NCBI GenBank assembly: GCA_017551515.1
Contig: JAFZLK010000022.1
Coordinates: 1-64,000, forward strand
Length of the DNA stretch: 64,000 bases
Origin: Bacteroidales bacterium
GTDB lineage: Bacteria; Bacteroidota; Bacteroidia; Bacteroidales; ML635J-15
Reading direction: 5' to 3'
Positions 50,998-57,716 of this stretch are shown here, in pieces. The notes under the pieces were generated by a model that saw nothing but the letters and a program-made list of their open reading frames with translations, was not told where the DNA came from and did not search any database. Within the stretch, counting starts at the first letter, position 1; the number at the start of each line of letters is the position of its first letter. The translations under genes were made by a program, and so were the position numbers.

Positions 50998-51260
50998 TGG
51001 TTTCTGTGCCTTCGGCGTTTCTATGTTTCTATGGGCTGCGCCCGTTTCTGCGCTACGCTGTTTCTGGGTTTCTATGCCTGCGGCGTTTATAAGTTTCTCG
51101 CTGCGCTGTTTCTCAGTTTGAATGTTTCAAAACAATATCAAACAACCAGAAACTCAGAAACTCAGAAACCCAGAAACCCAGAAACCAGAAACTCAGAAAC
51201 TCAGAAACCCAGAAACCCAGAAACCAGAAACTCAGAAACCCAGAAACCCAGAAATCCTCA
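50998..51260. repeat. GTTTCT/AGAAAC repeat locus 4 (inverted halves)
   Basis: The left half (50998-51118) has GTTTCT units with blocks GCCTTCGGC, GGGCTGCGCCC, GCCTGCGGC and CGCTGCG. The right half (51138-51260) is a tidy array of about 14 eight-base CAGAAACY units, with three 7-base slips. The halves are inverted relative to each other and could form a long hairpin. Lies between the divergent DUF2461 and glyA genes. At 51253-51300 it grades into TTCAAATC repeats. Confidence 0.85.
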
Positions 51261-51326
51261 AATCTTCAAATTTTCAAATCTTCAAATCTTTGAATTTTTT
51301 GAATCCTCATTGTGACAAATAATTAT

Positions 51327-52942: not shown

Positions 52943-53092
52943 TTAAAAGTGCCACGCTTTTTTTATGTGCTTATTTCAAAATAAAGGCACTGGCGGTGAA
53001 TGTCCCGAAAAGCCATAAAAGAGTAGGGAAAATGATTTTAAATTTTGAATAAAACCGATGTGCCGATGGGATATAACCGAGCATACATTAAA

Positions 53093-53941
53093 ATGAATAA
53101 TAAAATACTAATACTAATCTTGATGGCAATAGGTTTTACGACAGCATTGTCATCTTGTAAAAAAGATGAAGAACCAGATAATGAAACAAAAATTGTTGTT
53201 CCTGAAGGCGCATTGCCGCATTTGTTTTCGGTGAGTCCAACGAAAAAGGTATTTTTTGCCAACGGAAATCTACAATACCAAGCATCTACCAATACTTGGC
53301 GATTTGCTGCAAACCAATGGGACACAATAGGCTGCGGAAATATACTACGTTCAGCAACATATGAAGGTTGGATCGATTTGTTTAGTTATGGAACAAGTGG
53401 TTATAATGGTGCTGTTCCATATAAATTCTACGGACAATATGAAGATTTACCAACGAATGATATTTCTGGTACCAATTATGACTGGGGGGGCTATAATCCA
53501 ATAAGCAATGCAGGAAACAAAGCAGGTCTATGGCGATCTTTGACATACGATGAAATACGTTATATGCTGTATCAAAGATCTTTTATTGGTTATTCTTTTG
53601 GACTCGGAAAACTTAAATTACAAAATGATAGCGAAATGATAGGTGTATTTATATTTCCAGATGACTCTGAAAATTATAGTGATAATTATAGTTCCAATGT
53701 TATAAAAATGTCAGTTTCTGAATTAGAAGCAACAGGAACAGTATTCTTGCCTTATACGGGTGTAATAAATCAGATGTGGTCAGGTTCATATTTTTATGAT
53801 AAAGATCATCTAAGTGTATATCTTTTAGGTTCTCCTAAATGTTTAGAATTTGTTACCGGCTATTTATGGCCTCCGACCCAATCCAGAGAGTACGGATGTG
53901 TGCGCTTAGTATGCGATTACAAAGAACAAAATAACAAATAG
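53093..53941 (+). CDS. Lipoprotein, GNLQY-type surface protein (paralogue 1)
   Basis: 282 residues from the ATG at 53093, giving a lipoprotein leader with lipobox LSSC (Cys20). The mature protein begins KKDEEPDNET and contains FSVSPTKKVFFANGNLQYQASTNTWRFAANQWD, TYEGWIDLFSYGTSGY, and YDWGGYNPISNAGNKAGLWRSLTYDE. This organisation recurs in many Bacteroidetes surface proteins and has the feel of a C-type-lectin/SUMF-like domain. About 45-50% similar to the next gene by eye. Role unknown. Confidence 0.72.
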   Translation: MNNKILILILMAIGFTTALSSCKKDEEPDNETKIVVPEGALPHLFSVSPTKKVFFANGNLQYQASTNTWRFAANQWDTIGCGNILRSATYEGWIDLFSYGTSGYNGAVPYKFYGQYEDLPTNDISGTNYDWGGYNPISNAGNKAGLWRSLTYDEIRYMLYQRSFIGYSFGLGKLKLQNDSEMIGVFIFPDDSENYSDNYSSNVIKMSVSELEATGTVFLPYTGVINQMWSGSYFYDKDHLSVYLLGSPKCLEFVTGYLWPPTQSREYGCVRLVCDYKEQNNK

Positions 53942-53952
53942 GAGGATATGAT

Positions 53953-54768
53953 ATGAAAAAAATATTGATAATAACAAGTTTGCTTATAGTAGCAATCGCA
54001 TTTACTCAGTGCAAGAAAGATGAAGAAAATAACATTTATCCCGAACTAAATGGACCTGTAGGTACTACAGGAAATACATTCTCGGTAAGTGCTAGCAAAA
54101 AAGTTTATTTCTCGCAAGGAAACTTACAATATAACCCGTCATCCAGCACATGGCGCTTTGCAGTGAACCAATGCGATACAATTGGTGTCACACCAGACAG
54201 TATTCCTCCAACATACGATGGATGGATAGATTTATTCATTTATGCTTCTAGCGGATACGACAGCATATTTCCATATCTGAACAAACTTCCAAGCAATAAG
54301 ACAGACATTGGAAAGACGAACATATCTGGCACCAGTTACGACTGGGGACACTACAACCCCATAAGCAACGGCGGAAACAAGGCTGGACTATGGCGTATCC
54401 TTACAAAAGAAGAAATGTCGTATTTGCTTGAACGTCAGGATGCAAATGGGTACTACCTCGCAGGAAAAGGTTCTCTATACAGAGAAGATGGAAGCATATT
54501 GGAGGGTGTTTTCATCATGCCAGACAATTATGTAGGTGAACACGAAGATCATTTTAACTGGGGAGAAATCACCGAAACAGAACTAAACAAGTGGGGTGGC
54601 ATATTTTTATTAAGTGCGCCATCATATTATTGCTTGCACATAGGTTCTGACAGAACAAGTATATATGGTTCTTCTGAATATTTTAACACTCGTTTTGGCG
54701 TTGTATCATGGCAACCTGGTTGGAGCCCAAAAGCAATTGTCCGACTTGTACAAGATTGCACGGAATAA
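53953..54768 (+). CDS. Lipoprotein, GNLQY-type surface protein (paralogue 2)
   Basis: 271 residues. Leader with lipobox FTQC (Cys19), then KKDEENNIYP. Shares with paralogue 1 the blocks FSVSASKKVYFSQGNLQYNPSSSTWRFAVNQCD, YDGWIDLFIYASSGYD, YDWGHYNPISNGGNKAGLWRILTKEE. Twelve bases separate the genes, so they form an operon made by tandem duplication followed by divergence (C-terminal halves differ more). Terminated by a hairpin at 54795-54823. Confidence 0.72.
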   Translation: MKKILIITSLLIVAIAFTQCKKDEENNIYPELNGPVGTTGNTFSVSASKKVYFSQGNLQYNPSSSTWRFAVNQCDTIGVTPDSIPPTYDGWIDLFIYASSGYDSIFPYLNKLPSNKTDIGKTNISGTSYDWGHYNPISNGGNKAGLWRILTKEEMSYLLERQDANGYYLAGKGSLYREDGSILEGVFIMPDNYVGEHEDHFNWGEITETELNKWGGIFLLSAPSYYCLHIGSDRTSIYGSSEYFNTRFGVVSWQPGWSPKAIVRLVQDCTE

Positions 54769-55395: not shown

Positions 55396-55432
55396 AATCA
55401 CAAAACATTATTCCACATTTCATTTTTTGTAG

Positions 55433-55440
55433 TATTTTTG
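55433..55440 (+). promoter_or_regulatory. -7 box for the ParE-type TA operon
   Basis: TATTTTTG, 24 bases before the antitoxin start codon. Confidence 0.45.
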
Positions 55441-55464
55441 CAAATATATTAAAAGCGAACTAAA

Positions 55465-55725
55465 ATGAATGGTGTCAGCATACAGGTGAATCTACCGAAT
55501 TATGGCAAATACGAACCCGCGGAACTCAAACATATCCTTACTCGTATTGCTCTAGATTTAATAGAGGAAACAGAGGTTTCGTTTCCATGCTCGTACACTG
55601 AAGAAGAAGCCAAATCAATAGCCATACAAAGAGGTCGTGACATTAAGGCAGGCAAAGCAAAACTGATACCGCACGATGATGTTATGTCAGAAATGAACCA
55701 ACTAATTGCTTCTTATGCAGATTAA
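55465..55725 (+). CDS. Putative antitoxin of a ParE-type toxin
   Basis: 86 residues. Small, with an N-terminal beta-like stretch and C-terminal GRDIKAGKAKLIPHDDVMSEMNQLIASYAD, a tail typical of antitoxins that pair with ParE/RelE toxins. The downstream toxin start lies 11 bases inside this gene. Probably binds the toxin and represses the operon. Confidence 0.7.
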   Translation: MNGVSIQVNLPNYGKYEPAELKHILTRIALDLIEETEVSFPCSYTEEEAKSIAIQRGRDIKAGKAKLIPHDDVMSEMNQLIASYAD

Positions 55726-56041
55726 TTGGAGCGAACAATCGCAAAACGACCTAAAAGATATTTTGTCGTATGTTGGAAGTAATTTTGGACGGCAAAAGGC
55801 AGAAATTGTACTTTCTAACATTCGCAGTACAGTTGAATTATTAAAAGATTTTCCTCTTTTAGGCAAAAATTTTGTTGAAGATAAAACATTAGGAATTTAC
55901 TATCGGTCTCTTTCTTCCAAATTGAATCAGATTGTTTACTACATTGAGAGCGATTCCATTAACATTGTCGCTATTTGGCAAAACCGCTGCGACATAAATA
56001 GTTTGTATAAGAGAGTAAACACAAAAAAAACAATTCGATAA
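55715..56041 (+). CDS. ParE/RelE superfamily toxin
   Basis: 108 residues from the ATG at 55715. Typical opening MQINWSEQSQNDLKDILSYVGSNFGRQKA, then LLKDFPLLGKNFV, and the beta strand IYYRSLSSKLNQIVYYIESDSINIVAIWQNRCD with the conserved R...I..IWQNR end. ParE members inhibit gyrase, RelE members cleave mRNA; sequence favours ParE. Overlaps the antitoxin gene by 11 bases. Confidence 0.88.
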   Translation: MQINWSEQSQNDLKDILSYVGSNFGRQKAEIVLSNIRSTVELLKDFPLLGKNFVEDKTLGIYYRSLSSKLNQIVYYIESDSINIVAIWQNRCDINSLYKRVNTKKTIR

Positions 56042-56060
56042 TAACTTGCTAAGCTAGCAT

Positions 56061-56155
56061 ATTCCGCCAAAATACTTTTCATATTTCAGCGGAATCTATA
56101 CTTCAAAACACACATTCCGCTGAAAGTTTATATAGATTTCAGCGGAATCTTTTTA
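56061..56155. repeat. 95-bp double palindrome, left copy (after ATPase stop)
   Basis: Contains four ATTCCGC/GCGGAAT half-sites making two hairpins: ATTCCGC...GCGGAAT (56061-56095) and a perfect 12-bp-arm hairpin ATTCCGCTGAAA / TTTCAGCGGAAT with an 11-base loop (56113-56147). It is 93% identical (7 differences of 95) and in the same orientation as 57622-57716. Separated from the ATPase stop codon by four bases. Confidence 0.92.
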
Positions 56156-56159
56156 GTGT

Positions 56160-57578
56160 TTATACAAACAAATCACTTAATATCAAATTGTTATCTAAAA
56201 TTTGCGAATTAGAATTAGGCGTAATACCCTGCGTTGTTATCATTGCAATAAAAACCGTTTTGCTGGTTTCGTTTTCTTCGATAAAAGTTTCAATCTTATT
56301 GCTGAGATTTTTCTCATAGGCGGCAGTTATGGTGTATTGCTTGTTGCTCCATTTCATTTCGCAAAGCGTTATGGAATCATCGTTTCTGTCGATTACAAGG
56401 TCAATTTGCGCACCGCCATCTTGCTTGCTACTGCGCCACGAATATACATTTGTAATTACTCCCGAAATGCCAAGTCCTTGCTTTATCTGCCTTACATGCG
56501 CCAGACACAATTGTTCAAACGCATATCCAATCCAAGCATTACGCAATGAAGACCGCATATTCTTCGACCAGAATTCTTCTTCATTAACCTTGCGTTCCCA
56601 TATGAAATTCAAGTAAAACAATGTGTAAAAATCAACAAGTTGGAACAAAGCGGTCTTCTTTTTCTTGTCAAATGGCGTATAGCAACGAATGAAACCGCAG
56701 TTTTCCAAGTCAGCCAAAGCCTTCGAGAATGTTCCCCCGTCTGAGATTTTCAATCCTTTGACAATCTCGTCACGCGAAAGGCCTTTTTTCTTGCTTCCAA
56801 GCAGTTTAACTATACCAATATATAGTTTGGAATTTGTAAATAGCGATGCATAAAGGTTGTTGAATTCGCCACGGAGTACGCCATTCTGCCTGAAAAATAG
56901 AAAATCCACATTTTTTGCAAGACTTAGCGACGGGTCGAGCAGGCTTAGATAATATGGTACGCCACCGAAAATCATATAACATTCGGCAATCATCATTCTG
57001 CCCCAGCGGAATTTCCGTGATTTCAAATAAAGTTCCGTTTCCTTGAGCGTGAACGGCTCGAGACGAATGTGCAATGTAATACGATTGTGCAGTCCGCCAC
57101 GATTGTTTATCAGTTTGTCTGTCATCCAAGATGTTGCCGAACCGCAAACCACAAGCATGATATCTTTGCGAGCCGATGCCCATCCGTTCCAGAAATGCTC
57201 AAAAGCCGAGATAAAAACGGCATCCGACTTGTCCATCCACGGCAGTTCGTCAAGGAATACGACCTTTTTGCGCGACTTAGGCAATGCGCCAAGAAACCTT
57301 TTCAGTTCGCCAAACGCATCCTGCCACGAAGTAATTTCTGCTACATCGGTTAGACCTTGTTCGCGCAATGCGTTGGCAAAGCCTACCAACTGCTCGCGTC
57401 GCGAAGCATTCATCATCGCTGCGTACTGGAAATCAATTTTCCGAAAAGCATTCCTTACCAAAAATGTCTTTCCTACACGCCTACGACCATAAACAGCGAC
57501 AAACTCCGACTGCTTTGATTCATAGTAGCGAGCCAACTGTCGCAATTCGTATTCCCGACCTACAATTTTTACGTTCAT
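56160..57578 (-). CDS. ATPase_2/DUF234-type AAA ATPase with nuclease-like C terminus
   Basis: 472 residues. Walker A GRRRVGKT (31-38), Walker B VVFLDELPWMD (106-116), sensor VVCGSATSWM (~144-153), winged-helix-like middle (~255-310) and C-terminal DUF234 domain. The end carries AQIDLVIDR (Asp393) and LCEMKWSN (Glu407, Lys409), a D...ExK pattern like PD-(D/E)XK nucleases; GYAFEQLC at 351-358 is an additional conserved Glu. Family members are lineage-specific and mobile-looking in Bacteroidetes and archaea, function unproved. Lone gene between two direct 95-bp repeats; the upstream repeat overlaps the region of the -33 box. Confidence 0.9.
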   Translation of the reverse strand: MNVKIVGREYELRQLARYYESKQSEFVAVYGRRRVGKTFLVRNAFRKIDFQYAAMMNASRREQLVGFANALREQGLTDVAEITSWQDAFGELKRFLGALPKSRKKVVFLDELPWMDKSDAVFISAFEHFWNGWASARKDIMLVVCGSATSWMTDKLINNRGGLHNRITLHIRLEPFTLKETELYLKSRKFRWGRMMIAECYMIFGGVPYYLSLLDPSLSLAKNVDFLFFRQNGVLRGEFNNLYASLFTNSKLYIGIVKLLGSKKKGLSRDEIVKGLKISDGGTFSKALADLENCGFIRCYTPFDKKKKTALFQLVDFYTLFYLNFIWERKVNEEEFWSKNMRSSLRNAWIGYAFEQLCLAHVRQIKQGLGISGVITNVYSWRSSKQDGGAQIDLVIDRNDDSITLCEMKWSNKQYTITAAYEKNLSNKIETFIEENETSKTVFIAMITTQGITPNSNSQILDNNLILSDLFV

Positions 57579-57598
57579 TCCAATTATTATTTATGCCA

Positions 57599-57606
57599 CA
57601 AAGGTA
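57599..57606 (-). promoter_or_regulatory. -7 box of the DUF234 ATPase promoter
   Basis: Minus-strand TACCTTTG; the expected -33 position (TTTTG at 57629-57633) falls inside the right 95-bp repeat, so the repeat could act as operator. Confidence 0.5.
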
Positions 57607-57621
57607 ATAATATTTCCCAAC

Positions 57622-57716
57622 ATTCCGCCAAAACATTTTTCATATTTCAGCGGAATCTATACTCTAAAATATACATTCCGCTGAAAGTTTATATATATTT
57701 CAGCGGAATCTTTTTA
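57622..57716. repeat. 95-bp double palindrome, right copy (ATPase promoter side)
   Basis: Same unit as 56061-56155: ATTCCGCC...GCGGAAT and ATTCCGCTGAAA / TTTCAGCGGAAT hairpins. The seven differences from the left copy are six transitions or AT-rich changes in loops and one G/T; all arms of the second hairpin are conserved. Confidence 0.92.

What the first reader, a model, noticed from the sequence alone, without database searches (positions are those of the whole stretch)
56061..57716. DUF234 ATPase gene bracketed by 93%-identical 95-bp double palindromes
The two copies differ at only seven of 95 positions while containing four ATTCCGC half-sites each. One covers the -33 region, one ends four bases from the stop codon. 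High identity of flanks around a single ORF suggests recent duplication or transposition, or strong selection as paired binding sites.
Basis: seen in the sequence. Interest (0 to 1): 0.78.

Follow-up and report, generated by a model that had tools for sequence, protein, structure and literature searches.

The report
Palindrome-framed ATPase-nuclease gene (PDC-S27 family)
A suspected anti-virus gene of rumen bacteria sits between two copies of a DNA palindrome found nowhere else in its genome, and most of its relatives carry palindromes of their own over their promoters, which suggests that each protein recognises its own DNA tag and gives a directly testable clue to a common defence gene of unknown mechanism.

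Summary
Two 95-bp direct repeats (56061-56155 and 57622-57716, 7 differences), each of two palindromes, bracket a 472-aa ATPase + winged-helix + PD-(D/E)XK protein (ATPase_2/DUF234; PADLOC candidate defence gene PDC-S27, E=3e-195). All seven differences fall outside the 12-bp palindrome arms. The palindrome occurs only at this gene, in this genome and in five relatives with the orthologue. Recent duplication is not supported: six species share the two-copy state.
The pattern is general. A strong upstream palindrome is present in 85% of 117 homologues (8% of control genes, 3% of shuffles), most often 13-15 bp from a TAnnTTTG promoter box. Matching repeats flank 32/37 genus homologues and 44/53 further ones (6/130 controls). 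Each paralogue has its own arms. Arm sequence covaries best with the helix-turn-helix, though a simple residue-base code failed a held-out test.
Units sit at different loci in related genomes.
Best reading: a horizontally moving, self-recognising ATPase-nuclease whose palindromes are its own operators, with a second site behind the gene. Self-catalysed mobility is possible but unproven. I found no published description of the palindromes.

The parts
56160..57578 (-). 472-aa ATPase_2 + winged helix + DUF234 PD-(D/E)XK nuclease (PDC-S27 family)
   Evidence: ORF; Pfam; PADLOC PDC-S27 E=3.4e-195; Walker and nuclease residues invariant in 47 homologues; AF2 pLDDT 91.6
57622..57716 (-). Upstream repeat: two palindromes (57622-57656, 57675-57709), 53 bp centre to centre; candidate operator
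   Evidence: conserved in orthologues
56061..56155 (-). Downstream repeat, same orientation: two palindromes (56061-56095, 56114-56148); ends 4 nt from the stop codon
57599..57606 (-). TACCTTTG, Bacteroidota -7 box (TAnnTTTG), 15 bp from the palindrome edge
   Evidence: sequence; family-wide modal spacing 13-15 bp
57629..57632 (-). TTTG inside the palindrome arm, candidate -33 box
   Evidence: sequence; 22 bp from the -7 box
56700..56774 (-). Residues 269-293: helix-turn-helix (LKISDGGTFSKALADLE), the region that covaries best with arm sequence
   Evidence: AF2 helices 269-276 and 282-293; covariation
56352..56516 (-). PD-(D/E)XK nuclease core (E355, D393, E407, K409 invariant)
   Evidence: DUF234

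Best explanation
The gene and its palindromes form one horizontally moving unit. The encoded STAND/ORC-like ATPase binds its own palindromes as a symmetric oligomer through the winged helix. The upstream palindromes lie on the -33 region and act as the operator, keeping the potentially toxic nuclease low. The second copy behind the gene is a further binding site, perhaps for looping, a local reservoir, or marking the other edge of the unit. Each paralogue has its own arm sequence, so a dozen such genes can coexist without cross-talk. The nuclease probably acts in defence, as its PDC-S27 listing suggests. Shown: palindromes, their conservation, promoter spacing, bracketing, exclusivity, loss with one copy left, different loci in relatives. 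Inferred: binding by the encoded protein, repression, the role of the second copy, defence activity.
For: Palindrome in the 150 bp upstream of 85% of 117 homologues vs 8% of 74 control ORFs and 3% of shuffles; 47/53 in a later set. TAnnTTTG in the last 75 bp in 124/141 vs 7/141 shuffled, with modal gap to the palindrome 13-15 bp. Matching flanking repeats in 32/37 genus homologues, 25/74 broad homologues, 6/130 control ORFs, and 44/53 in the later set. Palindrome exclusive to its gene. Arms conserved while spacers vary; arms change on both sides in relatives. Arm similarity, controlled for overall protein identity, correlates best with residues 273-284, the HTH (partial r 0.23, 0/300 label shuffles reach it; rank 1 of 461 in the pooled set). 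Within-clade switches pair S280 with CCAAA and N280 with CTAAA (L085 vs its clade; L100, L123 vs L095, L119). Palindrome centres cluster 51-54 bp apart, about five helical turns.
Against: No binding or expression data. The residue-280 code failed on held-out paralogues (10/16, p=0.125; 1/4 among distant non-redundant ones). In the held-out set the HTH window ranks only 44 of 461 (r 0.11, p 0.008), and the label shuffles ignore relatedness. An operator alone does not explain the downstream copy. Most of the broad homologues lack a detectable matching downstream copy. No upstream palindrome found at the Haloferax and Desulfosarcina homologues.
Confidence: 0.6

Rival explanations
1. The palindromes are the ends of a self-mobile single-gene element: the ATPase-nuclease recognises them, cuts, and moves or reinserts the unit (like RAYT/REP or IS200-type logic with different enzymes).
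For: In non-syntenic pairs at 80% DNA identity or more, homology ends at the palindrome outer edges (window clade left 132-137, right 102-105) or at palindrome and stop codon (Bacteroides clade left mostly 80-94, right -3 to +9). L110/L118 at 96% identity share only -58 to stop. Empty alleles. G024 has a truncated left-end remnant where G000 has a unit, and a complete unit of that type 45 kb away. A homologue lies between head-tail genes of Wolbachia phage WO.
Against: No multiplication: one copy per type per genome, no solo copies except relics. Flanking repeats are direct rather than inverted in most clades. No target duplication seen at two sites examined. ATPase paralogues in which Pfam detects no nuclease domain are also bracketed. 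Sharp edges could come from loss of unselected flanks.
Confidence: 0.2
2. The palindromes are transcription terminators or RNA hairpins on both sides of the gene, with no link to the encoded protein.
For: Hairpins with a T-rich tail (CTTTTTA) at the window copies.
Against: The upstream copy lies upstream of the -7 box at a preferred spacing. Several clades show no T-run. Arms are gene-specific and match between the two flanks. The G-T mismatch excess is part of a general G excess, so there is no wobble signature.
Confidence: 0.1
3. The repeats are a recent duplication or slippage product, or common genomic repeats, that happen to frame one gene.
For: 93% identity of the two copies.
Against: Shared by six species; found nowhere else in the genome; frequent across the family and rare in controls.
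Confidence: 0.03

Closest known systems
PDC-S27 phage defence candidate (PADLOC; PMC12988326, PMC13356809)
   Same: Same protein family, full length, E=3.4e-195; ATPase fused to PD-(D/E)XK
   Different: Those papers treat the protein only; a search of PMC12988326 for palindromes found nothing. Defence activity is unvalidated there.
arCOG03166, AAA+ ATPase fused to HTH and RecB nuclease (PMC4158269)
   Same: Same domain order; suggested there as defence or plasmid gene
   Different: Archaeal; no palindromes or inverted repeats mentioned. My one Haloferax homologue shows no upstream palindrome
RAYT/REP elements (from general knowledge)
   Same: Single gene flanked by its own clade-specific palindromes
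   Different: No HUH transposase; palindromes not dispersed through the genome; mostly direct orientation
Autoregulated toxin-antitoxin operons (from general knowledge)
   Same: Palindromic operator over the promoter of a potentially toxic gene; horizontally moving
   Different: One gene only, an ATPase; a matching copy also behind the gene
Integron cassettes with attC sites (from general knowledge)
   Same: Compact single-gene units with a palindrome behind the gene, direct orientation
   Different: Palindrome also in front, arms differ by gene type, scattered loci, no array

Membership tests
PDC-S27 | Full-length match to the PADLOC model | tested here: met
   1-471 of 472 residues, E=3.4e-195
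PDC-S27 | Antiviral activity | not testable with these tools
   No assay; candidate only in the literature
ATPase_2 + DUF234 | Both domains over the Pfam cut-off | tested here: met
   62.4 vs 33.2 and 27.7 vs 22.5 bits
PD-(D/E)XK nuclease | Catalytic E...D...ExK conserved | tested here: met
   E355, D393, E407, K409 invariant in 47 homologues
STAND / ORC-like ATPase | P-loop ATPase plus winged helix fold | tested here: met
   Foldseek: 2qen first, then ORC/Cdc6, STAND and NLR proteins
RAYT/REP | HUH Y1 transposase | tested here: not met
   Pfam shows ATPase-type and DUF234/DUF4143 domains only
RAYT/REP | Palindromes dispersed in the genome | tested here: not met
   Only four sites, all at the gene
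Insertion sequence / transposon | Terminal inverted repeats and target duplication | tested here: inconclusive
   Repeats are direct; no target duplication seen at two sites; no clean recent insertion available
Insertion sequence / transposon | Several near-identical copies in a genome | tested here: not met
   The 18 matches in G000 include no near-identical copy; the next best after the gene itself is 51% identical
Type II toxin-antitoxin | Toxin and antitoxin gene pair | tested here: not met
   One gene between the repeats; the adjacent ParE module lies outside and is absent from that place in relatives
Integron cassette | attC core sites and integrase | not tested
   Palindromes are gene-specific; no dedicated search was run

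The most novel reading that the evidence does not exclude
PDC-S27 genes are a new kind of minimal mobile element: an ORC/STAND-like ATPase-nuclease that recognises palindromes at its own edges and moves or restores itself by cutting there, each lineage with its own orthogonal palindrome.
Probability: 0.17. Interest if true: 0.85.

Novelty: new variant of a known kind. Interest (0 to 1): 0.62.

Why it matters
PDC-S27 is among the commonest candidate defence genes in rumen bacteria and archaea and its mechanism is unknown. A cognate palindrome next to each gene gives a DNA ligand to test, a possible way to predict specificity from sequence, and an explanation of how many paralogues coexist. If the palindromes mark a mobile unit, the genes' presence inside defence loci may partly reflect insertion, not only function.

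Tried and rejected
1. Stop codon supplied by host DNA at the right edge: rejected, tails are short and clade-consistent. 2. RNA hairpin with G-U wobble: G-T 66 vs A-C 29, but the G excess is general, so inconclusive. 3. Concerted evolution of the two copies: no clear signal. 4. Three-letter code at residue 280: 23/33 in the discovery set but not confirmed on held-out paralogues. 5. Phage targets carrying the same palindrome: none in 2.9 million viral contigs for two palindrome types. 6. Known RNA family: none. 7. Clean target-site duplication at the C17 and C94 sites: not found, flanks rearranged. 9. Papers on DUF234/DUF4143 with palindromes or repeats: none relevant.

Full report
Observation. 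Each folds into two hairpins far better than shuffles. All seven differences lie outside the four 12-bp arms. The gene between them is a 472-aa ATPase_2/DUF234 protein. It matches the PADLOC candidate PDC-S27 over its full length. In 47 homologues the Walker residues and the nuclease residues E355, D393, E407 and K409 are invariant. The predicted structure (pLDDT 91.6) resembles 2qen, then ORC/Cdc6 and STAND proteins.

Exclusivity. ATTCCGC-N16..24-GCGGAAT occurs in the window's genome only at the four palindromes beside this gene. G007, G009, G010 and G022 also have exactly four and G021 three, all beside the orthologue. Genomes without the orthologue have at most one or two matches to this loose pattern (G008, G017, G024). 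One of these is a true relic: G024 keeps a solo double palindrome. Its left flank is the ORF found left of the unit in G000, G007, G009 and G010. Its right flank matches G021's flank beyond the unit at 91% over 4 kb. So G024 shows the locus without the gene and with one repeat left, now decayed in arm positions that are conserved in the other copies. In G002 and G020 glyA and dxr are neighbours with neither gene nor repeat. The unit is next to dxr in G000, G007, G010 and G022, but not in G009 and G021.

Generality. Of 118 homologues tested, about half have flanking repeats well above shuffles, mostly direct. Against other ORFs in the same loci the rates are 25/74 and 32/37 versus 6/130. Of the six control hits, one looks like a tandem gene copy and one is an AAA_14/DUF4143 ATPase. 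The repeats are palindromic with clade-specific arms. In 54 further loci, 53 gave genes that could be tested; 47 had an upstream palindrome and 44 had flanking repeats. An upstream palindrome within 150 bp is found in 85% of homologues versus 8% of controls and 3% of shuffles. Plasmid homologues in Segatella, Emticicia, Butyrivibrio and Rhodothermus, and the one in Wolbachia phage WO, also have one.

Operator. 124 of 141 genes with a palindrome have TAnnTTTG in the last 75 bp (7 of 141 after shuffling), most often 13-15 bp from the palindrome edge. In those genes the palindrome sits on the -33 region, as in the window. Pairs of palindromes cluster at 51-54 bp centre to centre, about five helical turns.

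Recognition by the encoded protein. Pairwise arm similarity, after removing the effect of overall protein identity, correlates best with residues 273-284 (partial r 0.23; 0 of 300 label shuffles reach it). This is the turn and start of the recognition helix in the model. In the later loci the same pre-chosen window gives r 0.11, p 0.008, rank 44 of 461; pooled it ranks first. Within clades, S280 goes with CCAAA and N280 with CTAAA. A mechanical three-letter code scored 23/33 on the discovery set but 10/16 on held-out loci, so I do not claim a code. The shuffles ignore relatedness, so these values are supportive, not decisive.

Mobility. In pairs at 80% DNA identity or more with different flanks, homology ends at the palindrome outer edges, or at the palindrome and the stop codon. 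For the C17 paralogue, flanks lie side by side without the unit in nine relatives. For the C94 paralogue, G024 has a truncated left-end remnant at the G000 site and a complete unit 45 kb away. I found no target duplication and no multiplication within a genome. Movement between genomes and sites is well supported; that the protein drives it is not. ATPase_2 paralogues of about 375 aa in which Pfam finds no nuclease domain are bracketed too, which speaks against the nuclease being the reason for the palindromes.

Known. PDC-S27 is described as a common, unvalidated candidate with an ATPase and a PD-(D/E)XK domain. arCOG03166 has the same architecture and was suggested as a defence gene. I found no paper on the palindromes in the library held; most subscription papers and all preprints could not be searched.

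Limits. Most genomes are metagenome assemblies, one per species. No expression or binding data exist here. The control sets come from the same loci. The palindrome detector is simple and misses degenerate cases.

Noticed in passing
55410-56058: A small module with a ParE-like toxin (PF05016, E=1e-9) lies exactly between the neighbouring ORF and the outer edge of the palindrome in G000 only; in G007, G010 and G024 the ORF abuts the palindrome. The palindrome edge may be an insertion hot spot.
   Followed up: partly
L013, L016, L021, L029, L031, L033 (own genome): ATPase_2 proteins of about 375 aa with no nuclease domain found by Pfam (four scanned) are also bracketed by direct copies of short, nearly spacer-free palindromes (e.g. 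TTGCGAAATTTTTCGCAA, ATTATTCAAAATGAATAAT). Most have no PADLOC name.
   Followed up: partly
L090, L100, L119, L095: In Muribaculaceae-type homologues the two flanking palindromes match better in inverted orientation; in L090 the spacer is the reverse complement between the copies.
   Followed up: no
L302:1350-1510: Wolbachia phage WO carries a homologue next to head-tail genes, preceded by two near-identical GC-rich palindromes (ACCGCGG...CCGCGGT).
   Followed up: no
L117 and L132, upstream regions: Three or more tandem palindromes at about 52-bp period (L117), or a very long nested one (L132).
   Followed up: no
53045-54768: Two tandem, similar lipoprotein-like ORFs (298 and 271 aa); Pfam was run on the second only and found nothing.
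   Followed up: no
51031-51315: ORF of low-complexity tandem repeats (ETQKPRNPETRNS) in an intergenic stretch.
   Followed up: no
[quoted passage not shown]
   Followed up: no
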